DNA from: Whitmania pigra
Lineage: Eukaryota > Annelida > Clitellata > Hirudinida > Haemopidae
Assembly (NCBI GenBank): GCA_021613335.1
Contig: JAJTWR010000251.1
Location: 3,592,501-3,656,500, forward strand
Reading direction: 5' to 3'
DNA length: 64,000 bases
The notes under the pieces were generated by a model that worked only from the letters and a program-made list of their open reading frames with translations, was not told the DNA's origin and did no database searches. Position 1 is the stretch's first letter. Every line of letters begins with the position of its first letter. Shown piece after piece: positions 7,388-59,080 of the stretch. The translations under genes and the position numbers were made by a program.

Positions 7388-10300
7388 ATGGGCAACAATT
7401 TCAGCTCAGAATACCAAGGTTTTTGATTCGAATGTGCCGTATTTGTTTACTAATTTTCTTCAATTAGTCAACAATTAAATTCAAATATTTTTATAATTAT
7501 AATGAAATTATTGTTTGGTTCTCTCAATTTCGATTATCATCTCTGCGTTATGTCCATCCAGAATTCGACCACAGCAATCCTGTATTCGCACGTCTCGAAC
7601 CGCTGAAGTTTCACGAGCTCCACAGTTCAGGGGTCGTCGTTTCGCCCAACCACCTCGTACTTAGATGCCTCGACCAGGGCTCGGGTATGGCCTTTAGCGA
7701 CCGCCCCATCCAGCCAGAAGAAATCATCTGTCTGAAGGTGGTCATGTTCCATAAGGGAGTGTTTCGATTCGGCCTCACGACCTACGATCCGGCTAGTCTG
7801 TCGCAAGAATCTTTGGGGACTTTCCTAGCTCGAAGCTCAAAAAGCATCTTCCTCAAAGAAGTGTCCAGCGGAACGACGCAGAAAAACACCCTCATTTTCT
7901 TTAAGTTCAACCAGGATGGTCGTGTAGTTTACGGCTGGCAGAGGAAGGACAAGGAAAAAGACAAGGGAGTCCTGATCTCTGATGTCCCCGTCCACATTCC
8001 AGTCTGGGCGATCTTCCACATTTCTGGGAGGAACCTTGCTTTGAAACTCGAAGGTTGGAATGTCAGAAAAATATCCACCAGTTTCTGTAATTTTCCGTGA
8101 TTCAGTTTTATTCTTAATTTTCTAATTCATCAACTACCAACTTAGTTAATCTTTAATTAAGACTAGAAATCTAGAGAATTTTCATTCGTCGTAATTTCGT
8201 AGACATTTACATTCTTATCCAGGAGATAGTCTCCAAGTTTTGAGGGCAAAATCATTCAGGAGAAAGCAAGCGATTGTAAGAACCAAGAGTTTAGAAGTAC
8301 TTTCTCTGGCCGATAACACGAGGGACATCTCGCCCTCAAGCAACGTTGATCCTGAAGTTCAGTCCTCCCATCAAGAAGAAGGAAGCACAAACTTTTCAAG
8401 ATCAAGATCTTTCAGCATAACGGGCCCCAGTCAACGTCGAGCTTCTCAATCCTCCACAGCACCAGACCCCCAAACGACCCAGATTTTGATCAAGGCCGGA
8501 AGACAGCAGGGCAGGCGATTCTCAAAACTTCAACCGAAACAAATAGAAGAAAGAATACCTATGTGCTTCCACTTAAAATCTGGCAGAAATATCAGTCTTT
8601 CAACGGAACGGATGATGGCAACAAACAGAACGGGACAGAGTAATGGTTACGTCTTTACCAGAAGACCACTATGGACGGAGGAAAAGTTGGTTATCCACAT
8701 CTCGAAAGTGAACGTCGAATCGGGAGCCAACTTAGGGTTTGGTTTGACCGTCTGCGACCCCAAAGTCGTTACCGAATTTCCAGACGATGCTGACGAGCTT
8801 CTCGACAGGGAAGAGTACTGGGTTTTCGTTAAGGACGCATGTACCAATTTAGTGGAAGGAGATGTTCTCGCTTTCATGATCAGCAAAAAGGGTAAGTGTT
8901 ACCACTTCTGTCATATACCAATATTATTCTAACGATTATCTGGTGCCGAGTAATTTCGTGTTTTGTTTTAAAGTAAATGTTATACGAACGTCTATGTAGT
9001 TATTATTGAAATAAAATTGTAAAATCATTGAGGCATGAAATAAGCTGGTCAAGAACTTAGAGTGGTTATGATTCATCTAAAAATTATTTTAAGTTCTATT
9101 GATGTCATCACTTGACCCAGTAAATATTGAAATTCAACACTAAGCCTGTTATATTAATATAACTCAATAAGTGCGACCAATTTAGTTCCAATGTCTATAA
9201 AATATCTAGGTGAGGTAGGAATATCGAAAAACCAGTCTCCATTTAGAATCCTGATGCATGTCGATCCACTGATGTTATTTTGGGCATTCTTCGACGTCAC
9301 TGGGCCACTCGAAAAGATATCAAGTCTCGGTGAGATTTTGGAAATTAACCTTCTTTAATTACAAGCATATAGTCAAAAATGGTTGAATTATCACTTTAGA
9401 GTAGTATTTAATTAAAAGCATTTTGTCAAAAAAAAGTTACATTATTACCTTAGAATGCGGGATTGAATAATATGGTCTTTTTTTTTATACAAACCAAGCT
9501 ATCTTTTGTTTGCACGCTTTATCATGCAATTATATCAAACGATAATCTAGGCGTCTGAATTGAATGAGTACGCATATTCACTTTTTATCCAATGATTAAA
9601 AGATTTCAAACGAATATTTTAGTAGATACATAAAGAGCTTGTAAATCTCAGAAATTTATGATGTCTGTAAATAGATATTTGGATTTTCCATCATTCGGTT
9701 TCTTGACAACCACGGGCTTTCTAACCGTTACAAGTTAATTAAGATACAACTTCAACTTAACGACTTCATAATGAATAAATGAACATATGATTTAAATCAT
9801 AGAATCTACTTTGCTGCGGAAGTAAACAAGAATTATTTTCTTCATCCCAAGGTACCGTTCTTCACAGAAAGCAATCCACAGAATGCCTAACAGACTCCTC
9901 CGTGGAGATACCAAGATCAGACGTCCTTAGACCCCTCCCCTCACAGCCAACACCCGCTGCAAGGTCAAACGAAAAGTACGAACAGCTGAGTCACGCAACA
10001 ACAGTTCAAGAAAATCTCGTCACATCCAGAAAATCTCAAGTCATCACACCTCAAGTCAGAAACAACTCCCATTATCTCGACCTCTTTGCCGACCTTCCTT
10101 CCCAGTTGGCCCCACCACTCATCCCTGTACCCTCAAACGTACGACCTCAGATCCCCCAAAGGAAAAGCAAAGCTCCCAGGGAGATCAGAAGACCGAATGT
10201 TGCAGCCCCGCCTCCAGTTCCAGAATCCCAGAATACAGAAATAGCAAAAAAACTCAGCCCCAAAGAGATAGAGTCGCTACTCAAGGTTGATGTTACAGAA

Positions 10301-10507
10301 TCATCGAAAGAGGAACAGAAACCAACAGAAGCCTTGCTTCACGAATGCAGCATTTGCTTCGAAAACGAGCCAAACTGTGTCCTTTACACGTGCGGACACA
10401 TGTGTCTGTGCTACGAGTGTGGTCAGGGCATTCTGAAGGGTAGCAATCCCCTCTGCCCTCTCTGCAGGAAACCAGTTGCAGACGTCATAAAGATATACAA
10501 GTCCTAA
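7388..10507 (+). CDS. neurl1: Neuralized-like RING E3 ubiquitin ligase
   Basis: Five coding exons splice in phase: 7388-7418, 7562-8053, 8223-8891, 9210-9329 and 9852-10507, giving 655 residues. Exon 1 encodes MGNNFSSEYQ. The start MGNNFSS is the same as I recall for vertebrate NEURL1 and is an N-myristoylation motif (Gly2). Exon 2 carries a first Neuralized (NHR) domain (about residues 28-172), rather diverged. A second NHR (about 290-437) contains FHLKSGRN and GFGLTVCDP. The C-terminus is a C3HC4 RING (about 602-650) with CSICFE, YTCGHMCLCYECG and CPLCRKP. Family members ubiquitinate Notch ligands such as Delta at the membrane and drive their endocytosis. A polyadenylation signal AATAAA lies at 10700. 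RNASEH1 converges from the right. Confidence 0.95.
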
Positions 10508-18462: not shown

Positions 18463-21400
18463 TCAATTTCTGACGCTGGCTGCCTCAACAGTTTCAGTCC
18501 TTTCAATTGCCTCCTCCTCAACTTTTTGGGCGGATTCTGCTTTCGCATCATCGTTGACTTCGTGAGGTTTCTCGTCGTCTTGGTGATGGTTTTCCACTTT
18601 TTCGTTTGGTTGTTCGAGCACCTCTTTATTGGCCTGGAGACAACAAATACATGGATGAAGTAAAATATGATATATTTTGTCAGATTGCAGTAAATAGGCA
18701 TCAATCTTATTATGATGAAAATATTAGGTCTTCAAACTCACTAATCTGTTAAATATTCAAGTATTCATATTATATTAATTAAAGCTTAAATGTTGTAGCA
18801 ATGTTTTCTTATTATTAACTTGGAATGTTAATCCTTATTTAATGAACTTTTTATTCAATTAATTAATTAAATAATGAACTCAACTAATTAATAATTTGAT
18901 CATCTTAAATTCAATCACTTAATAATTAATGAACTCAACTGTTGACAACATGAATTTTAAGTAGCTTTCAACTTCACCCACTTGATGCTTACAGCATCTG
19001 ATTTATCTCACCTCCTCATCATCATGCTTTTCCTTCACATCTGAGTCATTGTCCGTGGCCTCTATCTGCACAAGGGCACGAAGCAAAGGGCGGGGCGTCT
19101 CCCCTGCAATACCATAGTGGTGGATGGGCAGCGTTGCCAACCATTTCATCATCGTGTTTGTCATTAAGGAAAAAATATAAAAAATCAAACCGGCAGAGTA
19201 GGAAACAATGTCGATGCAGAAGAGTTGAACGAGATTGCATTGAGTAAATAAAAAATAAACAGCATTGCTTATATTTTAATTTGTGTGATATCAGCTATAT
19301 TTTGATATTCACAGATTTGGTGTCAAAAAGGATATGATTTCTCTTCTTTTTCAGTTTTGTAGATGCTCGCGTAGATATACTTCTCCTTGAATTCATTCAT
19401 CTGCTCCTGGAAAAGCATTAATTGACAACAAGCATTAAAAAAAAATTCAATCAAAAACAACCATGAAATCAGCATTTAGGACGGACAAAAATTTATCAGT
19501 CACCTGAAATTCTGACCAATCAATCGCTTCGTGCATTCCATCTTCTCCGAACTTTCTGTTGTAAGAGTCGTAATGAATTTGATCGAGCAGAAGACCAAGG
19601 GGAGGGGCTTTGGGAATGTCCAACTGTCAATAAGCATCAAAATTCATCAAGTGATCATGAATATTCAAATTTCTTATTAAATTCAGTGCATAGTAAAAGC
19701 ATGCAAATTTCAAACAGTCAAGCATGTTTATCTATGATTTCATACATTTTCTTTATTGACTGAATGTCCAGTTTTCTCTTAACACCCACAGACAATTTTG
19801 GAATATACAGAATGGCTAAAGCACATTATCCTTCAGACAAGATCAACAAGAGTGAGTAAATTGGGTTCGGTGACATAAAATGGTAGACATAACAGATAAG
19901 AAAATGCTAAGACAAAGTGGGAATTTAGCAGTATCATTTCAACAAGCGGCAATTTGTCACAGAGATAACCTGTGTAAAGTGACAAATTTGGTCCTCTTTT
20001 GTGCTTGAGATATTAGGGTTTGGAAACATAAAAGAATCGACATAACCAATGAGAAAATGCTAAAACAAAGAGTGGATTTGGAGGTTTTACTTCAAAATAA
20101 ATTGACTTAACAGGGTTGGTGAATTAACCGAGGTAAAGATAAGTGGGTTCGACTGCAATAGTTAATTTTTATGGTGCTATGTGCGTAGCATCATCAATAC
20201 CACCAATCATCAATTTGATCTCACATTCACCATACAGCCTAAAATAAATGGCAGCAACAAAGTAGATAAATAAGCCACCTTGTCTGTCTTCCAACTCTGT
20301 TTTATGGTGTCAATGGTCGCAAAACCTCTGCATACGGCCATTGTCATTCCTGGAATGAACTTGAATTTGTATCTCTCTGGGTTTTGAACCTGCAGGTCAT
20401 TCAACAACTAACCTGACATCTTCCTAATCTGATGAAGCATGAAACTCTGACCCTTGATGGTCAGCGCGACATATTCAATGTCGTCACGGATGAACGGTTC
20501 TCCAACCTGTTGCAGATGATTTAATGACGATTAGAATTGAACAACTGAATATAATTCAATCAATAATTAAATGACCATTAGAATTAAATAACTGAACAAG
20601 TGATCCACACACATTTAAACTTTGTCGTTATAACCATAATCATCAAGAGACATCAAGGCACCAAGTATAGATGGTGTCAATGGCTTTTCAAGGGTTGAGA
20701 AAAGCTTATTAAAAATTATTGTGTAGCAACAATAAGCATAACTAATAATAATAATAATAATAATAATAGATTGGATAAATAAACTTCAAGGCATGGTGCT
20801 TCATCCTCAAGTAACCAAGAAAGTCAGAGATAAAATCAGACAGGTAGTCAAGGGTTGAGGAAAGCTTTACTAATATTCTAGGAAGTCTACACCCAAGTAC
20901 AGGTACAAACACCTGCACGTAAGTCCAGGTACATGTCTCAAGTGTGTATAAAATACATTCTCACCTTGTACTCCATGATATAACGGTGTGCACTTGGATC
21001 AGAAGATTTCCTGGAGACAAAGAAGCAGTGAAGAATTGTTTTAATGTGGAGGATGCCTTAACTTAATAATGCGCTCAAACTGTTTCATAACAATAACAAT
21101 TCTCAAAGCTTATTTTAGAACAACTGGTCACTCCTAGCAGCTAAGGAATTAATACAAATAGATTAATATGCATAACTAACCAGTTAAGCAATTACTTAAT
21201 TAAGTTAATTATCCTCCACGAGACAATGAACATGGCTTACTTTCCAGAGGTGTAATTGTGGAAGTTCCGAGTGCCGCAGAAGATGTTGAGTATGTGCTGA
21301 ATCTGCTCCAGCACATCCTCTTGAATATAGAGCAGCTCATTAATATTCATGTAATCAATAAGTTACTAAAAATAACCACATAGATAAACACAAACTTGTG

Positions 21401-24400
21401 ATTCTGTAGCTTTCTGTGACATTCTAAAAAAAATTCAATTTGTTGAGCTATGGATATTCTAATTTTTCTTATATTTATAAATTTTAAAAGCAATGCTTCA
21501 ATTGTCAACTATTTCTAGAGACTAAAGCACTTCAATAGAACAAAATTTAAATAAAACTTCATAATCATTAGCCAATCGTCATTCACCAGCCAACAATAAC
21601 TGTTGAATAATAGAATAATACAAGAGTCGAGCAGCTAATAAAATCTATGATGACTTCTCGAGTTGGTATGAAACAAGTTCATCTAAGCAACCATTCAAAA
21701 ACAAATACGTTATGGCAATGACCATACCAACCAAAAAGGCACTGCAAAAAAACGAAAAATAAACAGCCAAATGAATGACCAATAGGAAAGTCCCTTAGAC
21801 ACGAACCTCAGTGATTGGAGCAAACGCAAAGGTGGGTGTGACATAGGTATAAGTTCTTGCTGAGCAGTTATTCTTGCTGTCAAAACTTTTCGTAACCTTC
21901 TTGTAGCCTTTTTATAATTATTTGTAATTATTAATAAATAAATTACAATCATTAAACCATTTAATATTTCTTTACAATTTTTTAAATCTATGATTTTGCT
22001 CGTAATTAGGTAACTGTATTTAACGTCATTTTGTTTAATAAATATGAAAAAGAATTACTTTCATTCTATGGGAAAGCAGCACAAGTGACATCTAAATAAT
22101 TGACACGTTTTACAGCAAGAACACATGAAACAATAAGTGTTTGCATTCATTCTCACATTAAGCCTATCAGTCAATTGCATTCGAAAATATAAAATATAAA
22201 AATATAGCCAACTATTAATGGCATAATAATTAATTAAATAAGCCAAATGATAATATTCAAATGAAATGACATCAGTTGCATGACAAAAGCATCTCACCAA
22301 ACACCTTGATTTGTTCAGGAAGGTTCTCGTTGATCTTTTTTATGCCATCTTCAACGTCAATGAACATGTATAAGGGAAGAAAACAATGTTTCACCACAAA
22401 TGATAATGATAATAATAGTAGATAATAATAATAATAGATAATGATAATAATAGTAGATAATGATAATAATAGTAGATAATAATAATAATAGTAGATAATG
22501 ATAATAATAGTAGATAATGATAATAATAGAGACCGACCGAATATCATTTTCGGCACTGAAAATTTACATTTTGTCATTTACGGCATCATTTCATTTTCTG
22601 TTCAGCTAGGAAAATTAATTCTCAGTTTGGCAAAATAGTATAATTGTTTTTCACTATAAATAGTGAATAAGTTGTTTAGGAGCTCAAAGCTAAGTCTTAC
22701 TAAGGAGATTCAAAAGGCCAAAACATTTGAAGACAGGGGAAACTCTTGAGGATCCCTGTCAGAGCTCCAAGAGCTCCAAGGTGGAGTAATAAACTGAATA
22801 ATGTAATGAAGCATAGATTCTCTTATACCATTTCCTATGTAATCCTGGATTTTTCTAAGTGAATGACTCAAACGTAGTCAGATTCTGATACTATTTCAAT
22901 AACCAATGTCAGTTTGCCAGCCATACCCTTCTCATTGACTCCATTAATTTGATTAACTAAGAGACATCTAATGCCCCAGAAGAGATAGATGGGCTGTGCA
23001 CGAGAGTGAGCCCACTAGCTGATTAGTCCACAACTTCCAATAGCCAAACAAGTCATGCCCTCTACAAACAACAGTTGATTAATTACATCAAGGAGCCATC
23101 ATGTCTTCCCAGAAGGTCCATGGATGTATATGAGTAGCGGCATCATAGTGAATTTCTACTTCTGGAAGCTGCTGCATGCAAGTACTTGTCTTCACTGCCT
23201 ACCAGCATGGCATGTGAGTTTTACAGCCAGACAACTGTATGCAGGCTGATGCAGCAATTATACTTGGCCACAATGGTCTCCACGAACACAGTGCCTAAAG
23301 TGGCACTAAATTGATAATGTTAAAAAAGAGAGTGGTCAAAAGTAACAAGATTTAATAACAAAGTTATAATGCTATAATGTTGTAAGATCAAAATTAATAA
23401 ATGCAGTTAAATAGCATATGATCTGCCTTATGACCCATGCGATTGCATTTCATTATTTGTGGTAATCCTAGAAAGATAGGAAAGTATTTGTAAAATAAAT
23501 AATTATTTTATTACATTCCTTTTTACAGGCAGCATATTTAAAAACTTTTAAAAATAGGTCTATTTACTCTTAATCATTTGGTAGGCAGTCCGACCTTATT
23601 TTGTTATGCTATACCATTAATATTAATATGGCTTTACCAATGATATGAATTTAAGAATTCAGTTGATTAATTTATAGCCATATTCAGTCAGCACAGTAAA
23701 GCTCCAATAAGCAAATAAGCTACGGGTCAGAGCATGATGCTCAGGAATCAAAACAAAAACATTGCCACTTATCGCTCACCACAATATAACTTTTCATGAA
23801 CAGTTCTCAATAAGTTTTGTCTAAAAGTTGTCTATAAATTTAAATTCATTAAATTAAAACTATTTTAATTTATTTATGTTTTTGTTTTTTTTACAGTTTA
23901 TGGGCATAAATCGGTTTCAGTTTACGTTTTATTTTTCCTTTAATGTCAAGCATTTTTTGCTATTTGGTCTATTTTTATATTCGTTCCCACCCCAAAAAAT
24001 CATTTTTGGTCAGACTCTAATAATAGTTAATTTACAATGTGCCATTAAATAAATTATAATTAAATTAAAAAAATAATGAATAAAATAAAATTCATCAAGT
24101 CATAAATTTCAACAATATGGTTAAACCATTATTTTTTCTTAATAATAAGGAAAAACTTATCTTGAAAGAGACCACTTGTCCGGCTGCCGAAACACCCTTG
24201 TCTGTCCTTGCTGCCCTTTGGAAGCCCATCTGCATGCACAGAGAATTATCATGATAAGGTTAATGCTTTATTGCTATTCCAATATATATTATTATTATAA
24301 TTAATTATAATACACATTATTATTATGATAATAAGAACGCCAATAATAATAATAATAATAACAGTAAGAAATTGAAAACACAAGCATGGGGTTATTTTTG

Positions 24401-25335
24401 CATTAAATTGCATAACCCCTGTTTAATATAAACAGTCAAAATATTTAAATGAATGGATATTAATCATTTTGCAAACCAATAACAAATAATCATTATCATC
24501 TTATGAAAAATTAATTAGGCATACCTTGGGACCAGGCTGTTCAATGTGGTCAGGTCTGACTATACCTGCCTTGGCAAAAGCAGCCAAGAGATCCTCCTCA
24601 ATGGTTGGATAGCCTGGATTTCTGAATATTATAATGCATTTGCATACATAAATAATAGGAACAAATACATAAATAAATTGTATTTGTAATAATGTTTCTG
24701 TAAAGATTATTATCAAAGCAAATGCTTAACTTGCACCTGTGCAATCACAAGTAACAACACCAAAGTAGAACAAAACTATCAGAAATTTGTGAGGTCACAC
24801 AATGTGAAAATACATCCTAAAGTAAAAGCAATTAAGAACAATATCCTTTGAAAAACAGAAAACAAATGATAAACCTAACAGTCAATGAACCTAATAGCAA
24901 TAAAAGCGAGCATCAAAAAGTTGTGTGTGAATCCGACAACCTTTGCATTCCGAGGTACCCCTTGCCAGAGTACATGAGCATCATTGCCACCTTTTTCTTC
25001 CTCATTGACCAATCCTGATTGAGGATGTTATTTGAGGTTTAACATGACAAATTTGTTTATCAGTTTATGTTAGATCAGTAACACAAAGCACAATGACTCT
25101 AATTAACCAATTTATAAAATAAACAAACAAGTAATGTTTGGTACTCATAAATCAATACCTGGTCATCATCAAGCTTTTGTCTTTTAGCAGCAGATGCCTC
25201 GTCATCTTCATAAACCTGCTTGTGTTTCCAAGTCTTGTTGGTTGATTTCTTTCCCATAACTTCAAAAAAAGCTGATCTGGCTGATGAAATGATCTTTTCG
25301 AGGCAACTTCCAATTCGGAATTGTGGCAGTTTCAT
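18463..25335 (-). CDS. PUS1: tRNA pseudouridine synthase PUS1
   Basis: Fourteen exons on the minus strand: 25335-25159, 25014-24941, 24621-24525, 24229-24161, 22367-22298, 21907-21807, 21335-21241, 21010-20965, 20506-20413, 20349-20279, 19623-19504, 19406-19336, 19153-19012 and 18633-18463; 465 residues with all phases consistent. It belongs to the TruA family. [11 protein letters not shown] opens the fold and the catalytic aspartate lies in [11 protein letters not shown]. Also seen are [33 protein letters not shown] and WLATLPIH. The enzyme isomerises uridines in tRNA (and some mRNA) in nucleus and mitochondria. Two in-frame starts exist: Met at 25335 adds an amphipathic, mitochondrial-leader-like stretch; Met at 25257 (MGKKSTNK) would give a nuclear form. 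The C-terminus is a lysine/glutamate-rich tail. Introns 4 and 12 are AT-AC (see findings). Intron 4, 1.8 kb, is the longest. Confidence 0.95.
19740..20154. mobile_element. Deleted pogo/Tigger-like element in a PUS1 intron
   Basis: The right end reads, on the minus strand, CAGTCGAACCC followed by TTACCTCGGTT. Similar words border the larger relic at 44137-44960, and both share GAATCGACATAACCAATG and a GTCCAGTTTTCT-like stretch. It carries no usable reading frame. The left boundary is approximate. Confidence 0.6.
22395..22535. repeat. GATAATAATAGTA-type microsatellite in PUS1 intron 4
   Basis: Interleaved GAT/AAT/AGT units repeat through about 140 bp. The minus strand here contains no AG dinucleotide suitable as a splice acceptor before the next exon, which matters for judging the intron 4 splice site. 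Confidence 0.85.
22600..24100. other. Intron 4 of PUS1, interior
   Basis: About 1.5 kb of AT-rich sequence without recognised coding capacity or transposon protein. The GC-richer part at 22880-23290 may be an unidentified dispersed repeat. Confidence 0.4.
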
Positions 25336-43225: not shown

Positions 43226-52508
<9,283 letters not shown>

Positions 52509-53530: not shown

Positions 53531-56500
53531 TCACAAGGGTTTTGGCAAAGAGTGAATGTGCTGGATCAGGCTGTTGCAGTACTCAGTTGATCTGTGCTTC
53601 AACCTCACATCATCAGTCAGCTTCAGCAACATGTCTGGACTGAGACTAGCATTCCTCATGAGTGTTCCTAAAGAATGAGCAAATTCATTAAAATCAGTAA
53701 TCAATAAAATGTGTACAAAAGATACATAAACAAACAAAGGATCTTCAGTGCATTTGCGATTCTCATTCAATTTTAATAGTAATAATAATAAAAATCTTCA
53801 TAGCAAGTCCAAGTATTCAGGACTCCTTACTTAAAATGGCCTCCTGGATCTTTTGGTTGGGATCATCCAGGTGAATCAAAAGTCCCTTGAAGATCTCCTC
53901 CAGGTGAGCACCATACAGCAAGACGTTGTAACCAGGGCGAAGGCAAGACAGGTAAGAGGAAAAGGTCTCCGATGCGGCGGTTCGAACGTTGTCGTTTCCA
54001 TCATCGAGTCTCTTCAAGAGGTCAGGGTAGAGGTTGTACAGGTCAGAGTTCTTCTCAAGGCTGTCACCAAAGATGGAAAAGATCTTGGAAAGGACATGAC
54101 AGGTGGTCAACCTTGTGCCCCTGTTCTCATCCTCCAACAGAGACCTCAGCTGGTTCACAATCTTGACATGCTCCAGGGTCTCAAACTGATAGATTGAAGA
54201 TTTAAGAATGGTTTTAATTAGATTAGGAAAATTGGTCATGATTGCTTTTGGGGAATATTAGTTTAACTGATTAATTGTGTGATTGTATTTAGCCAATTCA
54301 TTCGACTGTATCTGCATCAGGTGCCATTACCCAATGGTACTCCTGTAAGTCAGTCTTAAATACATTAGATCGATTACATTGTTTGATTTATAATAAATGT
54401 AACTTTAATAAACATAAGGATTAAATGAGAACTAATTCTTACACTAATTACAGTCCATAGTTTTTTTTTGTACTAATAAACTATTAATAAAAATATTTAT
54501 TACTAACATAAATATTCAAATAGTTTCAATTTTCAAACATGTTAAACTGCCCAACCTGCTCTCTGGTGAGTAGTTCAAGGTCAAGCACTGTCCAAAGGCA
54601 GGAGATGGCTGACTTTCTTAAAACCTCAGAAATCCTCCCAGCAGTCCATACACAGTTCGGAAGGATCATATCCACCACCACCCGCACAATTAAATCCCCA
54701 AACCTTAGCAAGAGATTAGTAATAATTAACCTTGTATTAATAATTAACTTTCTCTAGTTATCTTATATAGTTATCTTTGTTAACTTGTAGATTGTAATGA
54801 ATTTCAGTTTTATAAACTTAATAGTGCTTCTTTGAATAATGCATCGGCAAAGCCAAGATTACTTAACAATTGCTATCAATTTGTTGTAAAATTTTGCAAA
54901 AATACTATTTTAATAAAATTAAGTGAAATTAAATTAGTATAAGTTATTTAAACTATTCCGTCAATGAAAATTATCATAAAATAATATCATTTTCTGAAAC
55001 TATTTCACTGCTGCAAAAACAAAAATAACAATCCTCACCCTTCTCTGCAAAACAGCGAGGGCTTTGACGCCAGGACATGACTCACTAGGGCAAAAGAAGT
55101 GTGCCTAACTTCAGCATTCTTTGACGTTTTGAGGTTGTCTGCACAAATGTCCATTATTACTCCGAGACAATGTTCCAAAGAGTTGCCTGCACGGTTCAGT
55201 TTAAAAAATCTCAAAATTACATTCAAGGCTCTGATAACCATTTTTAAACATAAAATCATAATAATGTAAAAATATAATAATATAATATTTGTGGAACACA
55301 TTTCAAGAAGAATAGATTAGTCCCTTGGCTAGTTAATTAAATGATTTAGATCAATCTCAACAAAAAAACAAGCAACATCTATCATCCACCATCTGCCAAA
55401 TGAATGAGAGTCCCAAAGGCCAAAAGCTGAGGTGAGTTGTTGAGCCAATCATCTGACTGTTGCCTCAGTTGATCCAGAAAGTTTTGCGCATGCTTGCGAA
55501 TGAGCGAGCTTCTGTCTGGCATTTTCTCAGTGGAAGCCAACTTTTCCAGGAGTTCCAAGGACTGTTAATGATGACAAAATGAACATTTATAATTTTTTTC
55601 CAAACATGCTTACTTGTAAATATTGTGAAGTTACAATTTTTAAGCATTAAAATTCAAAATGTATTTGTTAAGTGCTTAGCTGAATTAGTTGTGTTCCTGC
55701 ATACGACGGTAATGGCAACAGTAGCAATGTGTCGTATTTGAAACCCAGCCTGCACTGACACCAGCGCCCTTGGGAAGGAACGCTATATAAATGGTTACAA
55801 GAAGCGCCTCTGCCGCTATGCATATGGCGCTATATAAATGAAGGTACAATTACAATTAAGAATAAGCAATTAAATAAAAAAAAAAAATGTTTTATTAGCG
55901 TCCGTTGCATGTCTAGATGATTAGGACGGTGCACCCGCAGCGGGGTTTGAACCCCGTGCTGCCATAGTGAGAGGAGCAGCCTTAACCGTTAGGCCATGCG
56001 GGCACACGAGCAATTAAATAACAGAAGGGCAAAAATAATAGCTTGCAGGTTAACCCAACAGATCAAGTTGATGTATGATACAGTAAAAGCAAATTATTAA
56101 TTGTCATAATCAAGCCACTTCCTCTGCTGTCTAGGACTGCCCATAGAAAACTACCTTTTATAAATCTGGGTACTCATATCCAGATACATTGGTGGATGTT
56201 AGAAATGAGATAATTGGAACAGGAAAAAGTCGACAGACTAAAACCAAAGCTATATTTAATGCCAATTCTAAACACATTTCAACTGTCTGACTTAGAATGC
56301 ATCCATCTGCTCAGCATTAATGTGAGCACTAACCAACCTTATTCTTGGTATGCTCTATCCTGTGGAGGGCCAGTATGTAGAGGAGCATTGAGAACATCTG
56401 ATATGCCACAGAATGGCAGTCATCTCCACTGATGATGATGATGCTCTCGATGCATGTTAGGAGAGCTTCTTGAATTCTCGTCTGTGAAACAAATTGTTTT

Positions 56501-56688
56501 TAGCACTTAATGTGAAAAGTCCACTTTAATTAGTATATCCATACTAATAATTAAGTTTAAATGCCCTTTTCTAATCTAGTATTTAACAAAACAAAGGTAT
56601 TGGAAGCATACATCCAAGGTCCATAATGATAATATGTTATTGCATTGCACAGATTACAAAACAAATGAAGTAATTATGATGATGATAA

Positions 56689-56719
<31 letters not shown>

Positions 56720-59080
56720 AATAACAACAATAATGTTAATAATAACAACGGGTGATTTTTTATGATGCCTCATCTTTTTTGGTTCAGTCATATCATTCAG
56801 TTATCCTGAATAGGCTTATAATCTATAAATTTGCAAATGGAAACTTAGAAAATCCCACCTCTGCCACTTGGCATATGCCCGGATCAGAAATGACATGGAG
56901 GATCCTGGGCAGGTGGGGCTGAAGTTGAACAGCCTGCGACCCTGTGATGACGTGAGCGAGGATGAAGATGGAGCCGTGGGACTGGGAGATCTTAATGTTC
57001 TCAGTGATCATCTTACACCAGATGTCCACGTCCACAAAGTAACCAATCAACTCTGAGCTTTTCATCACCTATGATCACCATTATTGAGATATTCTCAATG
57101 ATAGGTTGAAATGTTAATGTTTGGTGATAATAAAAATAAAATTATAGCACACAGTTGAAAATGAAATGATAATAAATGCAATAGTAACAACAAATGAAAT
57201 TAGATCTTGGCATTGGTTAGCTCAATCGGTTGCATTCTTGCACATGGTATTAACAGAAATCAACTTAATACGTTGCATTAATAACTCAGCCTGCAACGAT
57301 GGCATGCACGTAGGGCACTAAGAAGTGCCTTCACAATCAGATACATAAGTCTCAAAATATAGGCTAAATAGAAATAAACAGAATAATTATATTTCTAATT
57401 AAGAATTAGAGTTAAAGAATTCAATCTTTCAAGTGGAATGCAAAATCAACTCACAAATTCCACGACTTTTGATTCTTCATCACAGCAGGCCTTATAGAGT
57501 CCCAGGAGAGTCTTATCAAGGTGTTGCGTCACATTGTTCTCCTCGTTGGCAAGCATTACGTACAGCAACTTTGCCGCCTGGAGTCTCGTGTCAGCATTCC
57601 AATCTGCCATGTCGTTGACTATGGCAGGCAGAATCTTCGAATAATGGTTGTAGACCAACTGGCGACAACCAAGGTTTGGCCTTTTGACTGGAAGAATTAG
57701 AGCTAGCTTCGATTCAGTTCATAAAATAAACGACATTAGACATTGAATGTATTTAATGAAATTCTTACCATGCTTTGGATAATGATCTGGAGTAGGTTTC
57801 ATAAAGTCAATTTTATCTTTCAAGTCATTTTCATTTTCAGATTCATACTTCATGCCTGCACAAATTATGATTATAGTTGGACAGTTAAAGATTATCCTAT
57901 CATTTGGTGTACTGATGGAGAAGCAAATTAAATTAGTAAAGCACAGTTAATTACTGACAAAGTTAAGATATGCTGATTCGTTTTACAGCATTGTTTTAAA
58001 CATGCTTCAAACTATAACTTTAATTCATAATAAAACATAAATCCTAACAACATTCTATCCAAAATCAACGCACCAATGTCGTGCCACAATCCTTCGGCTT
58101 CCTCTCGTATCTCCAGAGTTTCATCGTTGAATCCAGAAAGAAGGAGGGGAATGAGCTTCGGCTGATACGAATATCGGTCGGGCAAATCCAGGAGCCACCC
58201 GCCAACCACTTGGATGACCGCCATACGTACAGAGGGCACAGGGTCAAATAGCCTTTGGGCAAGATGTGAAACCACATCATCAACAGATTTTCCATTTCCA
58301 TATTGAATAACAGTGCCTGAGGAACAGAGATGAAACCATTAAAATAATGTGTAAGTCAAATTTCCGCAATATTGTTAACATGAATATTCATTTGGTAACA
58401 GTATAAACTTTACCAATTGTCTGGATGACGAGAGCCCTAACTTTGGAGTGCTGGTGTGTCACAGTAAGCAAAAGGGGCTTTATCAATGTCTCCGAATGGT
58501 GATAGAATTGTTCTGGAATGGCTTTGGCCATCTGAGATGCACATTCGCAACTACACTTACGTATCTCTGAGTATGTGTCAGTGATGGTCTGCTGCAAGAT
58601 TTTAACCACATCATTCACAAATGGTGACACTTTTTTCTTACAAATTTGTATAATCTGTTCCAAGAATTTTAGTAGTTGGAGACGTATTTCTTCGGATGTT
58701 TCGACAATATCTTGTTGAGCCAAGCGCTTTACAAGAGTAGGAAATATTTTAATCAGCAAGCAATCTGGACTAGGTACTGTTGCAAAAACTTTGCAAATAA
58801 TTGAAATTGACAAATGTCGACATTGCTCCACAGGATCGCTAAATATTCTCAGGAGAGAGTTTATAAAGTGTTCTGAAGCAAAAACTTTCAGATTTTCTGT
58901 TTCATGACATTCTTCGGCTACGATTTGATTAATGTCTGTCAAAGCCTTTTTACGGACATTCTTGTTTTCTTCATGTAAACAATTTATAGGGCGCTGAACT
59001 TTTCTCACAACATCGTCATCCTGATTGTTCGTTTTAGCTGAAGACGTTTGAAAATCACGGGCAATAGCGTCAGCCATCAT
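53531..59080 (-). CDS. DNAAF5: Dynein axonemal assembly factor 5 (HEATR2)
   Basis: Eleven exons in phase on the minus strand: 59080-58414, 58316-58074, 57855-57769, 57687-57455, 57068-56859, 56481-56338, 55561-55390, 55186-55039, 54703-54556, 54185-53831 and 53667-53531; 847 residues (human about 855). It is built of HEAT repeats throughout. Family-specific stretches include [88 protein letters not shown] and [18 protein letters not shown]. The protein helps assemble axonemal dynein arms in the cytoplasm, and its loss in humans causes primary ciliary dyskinesia, so this animal has motile cilia or flagellated sperm. The start is MMADAIA; the second Met could also be used. Three SINE-like insertions lie in its introns. 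Confidence 0.95.
55674..55855 (+). mobile_element. tRNA-like SINE, family 2
   Basis: A box A-like TTAGCTGAATTAG head and box B-like TATTTGAAACCCAGCC are followed by two copies of CGCTATATAAATG, a tail word common in invertebrate SINEs. It lies in DNAAF5 intron 7-side sequence next to the family 1 copy at 55889. It is not a functional tRNA gene: no cloverleaf closes. Confidence 0.55.
55889..56010 (-). mobile_element. tRNA-derived SINE, family 1, best copy
   Basis: On the minus strand: CCCGCATGGCCTAACGGTT (box A), GGGGTTCAAACCCCG (box B), then CATCTAGACATGCAACGGAC and AATAAAAC, ending in an A/T-rich run. It is the cleanest of three copies and lies in a DNAAF5 intron. Confidence 0.8.
56671..56745. 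repeat. GAT/AAT/AAC microsatellite in a DNAAF5 intron
   Basis: GAT triplets pass into AAT and AAC triplets. Low complexity only. Confidence 0.8.
57205..57345 (+). mobile_element. tRNA-like SINE, family 2, degenerate
   Basis: GGTTAGCTCAATCGGTTGC resembles a tRNA 5' half with box A, and the AACTCAGCCTGCA downstream matches the corresponding part at 55740. Box B is worn. It lies in a DNAAF5 intron. Confidence 0.45.

What the first reader, a model, noticed from the sequence alone, without database searches (positions are those of the whole stretch)
19154..19335. U12-type AT-AC intron in PUS1
On the minus strand the 182-base intron begins ATATCCTTTT right after AAATC and ends TTCCTTAATGACAAACAC. 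ATATCCTT is the minor-spliceosome donor consensus. TTCCTTAAT is the branch-point consensus, about ten bases before the terminal AC. Splicing here restores phase 2 and gives [18 protein letters not shown], aligned residue by residue with the human TERDERSMAQWLSTLPIH that I recall. No GT-AG alternative fits. It implies this lineage keeps the minor spliceosome.
Basis: partly seen in the sequence, partly recalled or inferred. Interest (0 to 1): 0.8.

Follow-up and report, generated by a model that had tools for sequence, protein, structure and literature searches.

The report
Rare-class intron in annelid PUS1 gene
A gene for an RNA-modifying enzyme in a probable leech carries a well-supported, apparently ancient intron of the rare kind removed by the minor spliceosome, and another intron in the same gene has the same unusual ends but looks built for the ordinary spliceosome.

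Summary
On the minus strand, 19335-19154 is a 182-nt, phase-2 intron in PUS1, with the U12-type donor ATATCCTTTT, branch site TTCCTTAAT 10-11 nt before the 3' end, and terminal AC. Splicing it aligns the protein gap-free with human PUS1; no GT-AG alternative fits.

The genome encodes U11, U12, U6atac and a slightly sub-threshold U4atac, plus exons matching CENATAC and SCNM1. Three firm and one probable further ATATCC...AC introns were found. Gene models of a cockroach and a stick insect run past the same exon end as EKS-YPL/YPF, as an ATATCCTT donor at the same site and phase would. The intron is probably at least as old as protostomes.

It is also AT-AC, but major-like: ATAAGT...TTTTCTTCCCTTATAC.

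The species is probably a leech. Helobdella, the nearest named relative here, reportedly lost about 80% of its minor introns, mainly by conversion to major type (PMC10639083). This is a surviving member of a known class, not a new kind. Splicing itself was not observed.

The parts
19154..19335 (-). U12-type AT-AC intron (intron 13 of PUS1), 182 nt, phase 2
19326..19335 (-). minor-type donor ATATCCTTTT
   Evidence: sequence; 8 contiguous pairs with the U11 5' end; no pairing with a recalled U1 5' end, +1.6 kcal/mol
19163..19171 (-). branch site TTCCTTAAT, the only TTCCTTAAY in the window on either strand
19154..19155 (-). terminal AC of intron 13
19336..19406 (-). exon 13 of PUS1, ending ...TEKEEKS
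19012..19153 (-). exon 14 of PUS1, beginning [11 protein letters not shown]...
18463..25257 (-). PUS1 coding region, 15 exons, 443 aa; 12 of 14 introns GT-AG, introns 4 and 13 AT-AC
   Evidence: human PUS1 9h51_c E=1.9e-110; PF01416 E=3.5e-12
22368..24160 (-). intron 4 of PUS1, AT-AC of major (U2-like) type, 1793 nt, phase 0: AAG^ATAAGTTTTT...TTTTCTTCCCTTATAC^ATG
   Evidence: protein score 180 against Helobdella; best of 16 open GT/GC-AG joinings 135

Best explanation
19335-19154 is an old U12-type (minor) AT-AC spliceosomal intron in PUS1 of an annelid, probably a leech. By the known mechanism, U11 pairs with UCCUUUUU of the donor and U12 with UUCCUUAAU of the branch site as one unit; U6atac, delivered with U4atac, then takes over the donor (UCCUUU with AAAGGA), one of the two As of UUAAU attacks the donor, and the exons are joined inside the serine codon of EKS-MMKW. 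Shown here: sequence, phase, protein continuity, matching snRNA genes, other such introns in the genome. Inferred: that it is spliced this way in the animal, and that it has stood at this site since before annelids and insects parted.
For: Donor, branch site, AC and spacing. Best of all joinings for the protein, gap-free with human PUS1. All four minor snRNAs found, with the expected recognition sequences. Of 14 PUS1 donors it is the only one that a recalled U1 5' end cannot pair with and the one that U6atac pairs with best. Exons matching CENATAC and SCNM1. Further ATATCC...AC introns: three firm, one probable among 10 pattern matches, against 3 control matches. Two insect models read through the same exon end as SYPL and SYPF.
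Against: No transcript was seen. U4atac is under Rfam's cut-off. Pairing energies alone are not specific: U11 pairs better with the donors of introns 3 and 8 (-6.4, -5.9) than with this one (-4.5); the best U12 pairing in the last 40 nt is as strong in intron 4 (-6.9) as here (-6.8); and scans of the pre-mRNA with snRNA segments rank other stretches first. The insect evidence is amino acids, not DNA, and only 2 of 207 listed relatives; a search aimed at more found no candidates.
Confidence: 0.93

Rival explanations
1. The AT-AC intron at 19335-19154 is removed by the major spliceosome, as some AT-AC introns are.
For: Major-type AT-AC introns exist (PMC8280824 names SYCP2 and TAF2, passages), and intron 4 of this same gene looks like one.
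Against: The donor ATATCCTT does not pair with a recalled U1 5' end (+1.6 kcal/mol); the branch site is the strict minor consensus at minor spacing, with GACAAAC and no pyrimidine tract after it.
Confidence: 0.04
2. A GT-AG or GC-AG intron, a neighbouring AC, or an assembly error explains the site, and the AT-AC ends are not real.
For: 1 of 24 in-phase GT-AG pairs and 11 of 52 in-phase GC-AG pairs leave an open frame; an AC six bases earlier also stays open.
Against: None of these gives as good a protein. An error creating a ten-base donor and a nine-base branch motif in the right places is not credible (rates).
Confidence: 0.02
3. The intron is a U12-type intron that is no longer efficiently spliced, so that part of the PUS1 transcripts end at EEKS-YPF-stop and the enzyme is regulated by retention.
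For: The retained frame stops at once. Human AT-AN minor introns have relatively high basal retention (PMC8280824 abstract).
Against: No expression data; nothing in the sequence points to weak splice sites.
Confidence: 0.15

Closest known systems
U12-type (minor) AT-AC introns
   Same: Donor ATATCCTT, branch site TTCCTTAAY close to the 3' end, AC end, phase other than 0, minor snRNAs in the genome.
   Different: Nothing in kind; branch A at 10-11 nt from the end, at the short edge of the reported optimum of 11-13 nt (PMC3584512, passages).
Minor introns of the leech Helobdella robusta (PMC10639083)
   Same: Helobdella is the nearest named relative by PUS1 protein; the paper reports about 80% loss of minor introns, mainly by conversion to major type (passages).
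   Different: Whether Helobdella PUS1 keeps this intron could not be seen; only its protein model was read, and it runs correctly across the junction.
Major-type (U2) AT-AC introns, e.g. SYCP2 and TAF2 in human (named in PMC8280824)
   Same: Intron 4 of this gene: AT-AC ends with a donor ATAAGT and a pyrimidine-rich 3' end.
   Different: Does not describe intron 13. The ATAAGT form of such donors is recalled, not taken from a call.

Membership tests
U12-type intron | Donor RTATCCTT | tested here: met
   ATATCCTTTT at 19335-19326
U12-type intron | Branch site close to TTCCTTRAY | tested here: met
   TTCCTTAAT at 19171-19163
U12-type intron | Short distance from branch site to 3' splice site, optimum 11-13 nt | tested here: met
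   10 or 11 nt depending on which A (optimum from PMC3584512); borderline short
U12-type intron | No distinct pyrimidine tract before the 3' splice site | tested here: met
   GACAAACAC follows the branch motif; 10 of 17 pyrimidines near the end against 14 of 17 in introns 4 and 8; the stretch before the branch motif is T-rich
U12-type intron | Minor snRNAs U11, U12, U4atac, U6atac in the genome | tested here: met
   U4atac at 49 bits, under the cut-off of 53
U12-type intron | Removed by the U12-dependent spliceosome | not testable with these tools
   needs RNA and inhibition of U12 or U6atac
PUS1 | Full-length similarity to human PUS1 and a TruA-type synthase domain | tested here: met
   9h51_c E=1.9e-110, residues 14-356; PF01416 47.2 bits, cut-off 23.3
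Major-type AT-AC intron (intron 4) | AT and AC ends required by the protein | tested here: met
   score 180 against 135 for the best open GT/GC-AG joining
Major-type AT-AC intron (intron 4) | Recognised by U1 and U2 rather than U11 and U12 | tested here: inconclusive
   pairing energies U1 -3.9, U11 -1.7, U6atac +0.7, and 14 of 17 pyrimidines before the end; recalled U1 letters, no functional test

The most novel reading that the evidence does not exclude
PUS1 preserves two fates of minor introns side by side. Intron 13 stayed U12-type. Intron 4 would be an old U12-type AT-AC intron that changed its donor from ATATCC to ATAAGT, gained a pyrimidine tract and went over to the major spliceosome without ever changing its AT-AC ends. 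The Capitella model (a deletion after SLK, reading SLKI------SVFKIN) and the bivalve Solemya model (extra residues before the expected M, VVSLKIFIFFFYMLLNAEN) are odd at exactly this site, as gene finders blind to AT-AC would make them, so the switch may be as old as annelids and molluscs. AT-AC major introns in general might then be footprints of minor-to-major conversion.
Probability: 0.25. Interest if true: 0.6.

Novelty: new member of a known kind. Interest (0 to 1): 0.38.

Why it matters
A probable leech, from a group in which one species is reported to have shed most of its minor introns, still has the genes of the minor spliceosome and several AT-AC minor introns, one of which insects seem to share. 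The same gene offers a natural pair, a minor and a major-like AT-AC intron, in which conversion from one spliceosome to the other could be traced across annelids. Gene finders that allow only GT-AG ends would distort PUS1 at both places, as the odd insect, Capitella and Solemya models suggest.

Tried and rejected
Tried and rejected: GT-AG and GC-AG joinings at both AT-AC introns (for intron 4 only acceptors from 600 nt before the stated one onward and donors up to the first stop were tried). The nearer AC at TTCCTTAATGAC. A loose window scan for further U12-like introns gave 9 donor/branch combinations, only this one with a strict donor and a strict branch site. Duplex energy as a detector: not specific. 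Lineage from COX1: the four matches are open in the standard code and their loci have G+C of 0.374 to 0.601; they look bacterial, and no mitochondrial gene was found. Of the ten genome pattern matches, L019, L022, L023, L025 and L026 were rejected by eye on the translations (coding on the other strand, coding read-through, or no visible exon) and L018 stayed undecided. Papers: searches for PUS1 with 'U12-type intron', 'minor intron', 'U12 intron' and 'AT-AC' listed seven different papers, none evidently on an intron of PUS1 by title and abstract start; of these I saw passages only of PMC7960923, so I do not claim that it is not in print. A search for more read-through models of the insect kind found no candidates. 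Never answered: the genome pattern for GT-ending minor introns and the AT pattern for longer introns (111-171 nt between the motifs), so no genome-wide count and no ratio of the two subtypes is given.

Full report
What is there. The minus strand of 19335-19154 was read directly. It is 182 nt, begins ATATCCTTTTTG after ...AAAGAAGAGAAATC and ends ...TTTTTTCCTTAATGACAAACAC before GATGATGAAATGG. I built a model of the whole coding region, 15 exons from 25257 to 18463, 443 aa. Twelve of its 14 introns are GT-AG; intron 13 is the reported one and intron 4 is discussed below. The protein matches human PUS1 (PDB 9h51_c) at E=1.9e-110 over residues 14-356, with no gap at the intron-13 junction, and has the PseudoU_synth_1 domain (47.2 bits, cut-off 23.3).

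Is it more than chance. All donor/acceptor pairs between the two exons were tried. Of 88 GT-AG pairs, 24 are in phase and 1 is open; it is not among the 25 best proteins printed. The stated AT-AC pair gives the best protein of all. Strict ATATCCTT occurs twice and TTCCTTAAY once on the two strands of the window; that branch motif and one of those donors lie at the two ends of this intron. The branch A lies 10 or 11 nt from the 3' end. A review gives an optimum of 11-13 nt, and the lack of a distinct pyrimidine tract, as marks of U12-type introns (PMC3584512, passages).

The machinery. In the window's own genome (178 Mb, 381 contigs) the Rfam models find U12 at 3 places (best 123.5 bits, cut-off 53), U11 at 3 places (best 86.4, cut-off 39), U6atac at 22 places with E up to 0.001, 17 of them over the cut-off of 33 (best three 90.6-93.9 bits, all on contig C192), and U4atac at 1 place with 49 bits, under its cut-off of 53. 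These counts are lower bounds because only the best candidates are scored. Of the eight U6atac loci that I read, some of the weaker ones lack the 3' stem or run into simple repeats and look like dead copies (my reading). The recognition sequences are the expected ones: U12 GUAAGGAA for the branch site, U11 AAAAAGGG (L004) and U6atac AGAAAGGAG for the donor. U4atac and U6atac are predicted to pair (-32.2 kcal/mol, no shuffled control). With a recalled U1 5' end, intron 13 is the only one of the 14 donors that U1 cannot pair with (+1.6 kcal/mol; the others -3.0 to -9.7) and the one that U6atac pairs with best (-5.7). Against this, U11 pairs better with the donors of introns 3 and 8 (-6.4 and -5.9) than with this one (-4.5), the U12 pairing near the end is as strong in intron 4 (-6.9 against -6.8), and scanning the pre-mRNA with snRNA segments ranks other stretches first. 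Energy is therefore supporting evidence only. Single exons match CENATAC (35.7 bits, cut-off 25.3, model positions 2-37 of 330, sequence) and SCNM1 (47.8 bits, cut-off 27, sequence). CENATAC is reported to be needed above all for AT-AN minor introns in human cells (PMC8280824, passages).

Other minor introns in the genome. The pattern ATATCCTTT, 50-110 nt, TTCCTTRAY gave 10 matches; the tool's control, the pattern read backwards, gave 3. The PUS1 intron, with 155 nt between the motifs, is outside this range. I read all ten. Three have exon homology running across the predicted junction: uba4/MOCS3-like (L020; 5.9e-13), twinfilin (L021; 1.2e-16) and ADAM10-like (L024; 1.1e-8). One more, ADAM/disintegrin-like (L027), is probable (Pfam E=1.5e-5, 26.1 bits, under the curated cut-off of 35.1). 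One is undecided (L018) and five are not introns as far as I can see. The searches for GT-ending and for longer AT-ending introns did not complete by the machine.

Age of the intron. No other eukaryotic genome could be read, so I looked at protein models. Two searches found 493 and 1015 proteins and listed 120 each, 207 different ones. Two of the 207, both insects, run off the end of this exon: Periplaneta americana P0133 (...EIEEKSYPLSLW) and Timema genevievae P0135 (...EIQEKSYPFMLDGH) (P0133 also). Not all 207 reach this place. In phase 2, TC^ATATCCTTN reads S-Y-P-L or S-Y-P-F, just as the intron of the window would give if read through (EEKS-YPF-stop). A second Periplaneta model (P0132) has the spliced reading EEKSMLSW. 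The simplest inference is a U12-type donor at the same site and phase in these insects, so that the intron predates the split of annelids and arthropods. This rests on amino acids; the DNA must be read. A further search aimed at such models found no candidates.

A second AT-AC intron. Intron 4 (24160-22368, 1793 nt, phase 0) reads AAG^ATAAGTTTTT...TTGTTTTCTTCCCTTATAC^ATG. The AT-AC joining gives VVSFK^[17 protein letters not shown], gap-free with Helobdella VVSFKMFVDVEDAVGKINSHLP (score 180); the best of 16 open GT/GC-AG joinings scores 135. Against human PUS1 there is a one-residue gap four residues after this junction. Donor and pyrimidine tract are of the major type (U1 -3.9, U11 -1.7, U6atac +0.7 kcal/mol; 14 of 17 pyrimidines). 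A single sequencing error cannot explain it, because both ends differ from GT-AG in the matched way. Of the 207 proteins, four show three or more gap columns around this site: the Capitella model lacks residues here (SLKI------SVFKIN) and the Solemya model has extra ones (VVSLKIFIFFFYMLLNAEN), as gene finders blind to AT-AC might produce; the other two (P0019, insertion before GVSAAG; P0147, three extra residues) have no such look. I propose, as the bold reading only, that intron 4 is a minor intron that went over to the major spliceosome with its AT-AC ends kept.

Lineage and literature. The nearest named PUS1 is Helobdella robusta (65% over 74% of the C-terminal query; 73% over residues 36-200), then unnamed sequences, then the annelid Ridgeia. 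A leech is the likeliest source; this is an inference. [quoted passage not shown] Searches pairing minor-intron terms with leech listed that paper and one tick paper; those pairing PUS1 with minor-intron terms listed nothing evidently on this intron (titles and abstract starts only, plus passages of PMC7960923).

Verdict. The finding is correct in observation and interpretation. It is an ordinary member of a well-known class in an interesting lineage. The pairing with a major-like AT-AC intron in the same gene and the hint of a position shared with insects raise it a little above routine.

Noticed in passing
window 24160-22368 (-): Second AT-AC intron in PUS1, of major-like type (ATAAGT donor, pyrimidine-rich end); Capitella and Solemya protein models are odd at the same site.
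   Followed up: partly
L028-L031 (contigs C115, C49, C360, C47 of the genome): Four COX1-like genes open in the standard code with locus G+C of 0.374-0.601: the assembly seems to hold bacterial contigs, symbionts or contaminants.
   Followed up: partly
L008-L015 and further places listed: U6atac is multi-copy: 22 matches, three full-length ones clustered within about 4 kb on contig C192; several weaker copies look like dead ones.
   Followed up: partly
window 46758-47168 (+): Fragment of a mariner-type transposase (Pfam Transposase_1, E=2.1e-11).
   Followed up: no
window 7687-10507 (+), 49202-52508 (-), 53817-59080 (-): Other genes: two Neuralized domains and a RING finger; a forkhead and an FHA exon, possibly one FOXK-like gene; HEAT/DNAAF5 exons.
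   Followed up: no
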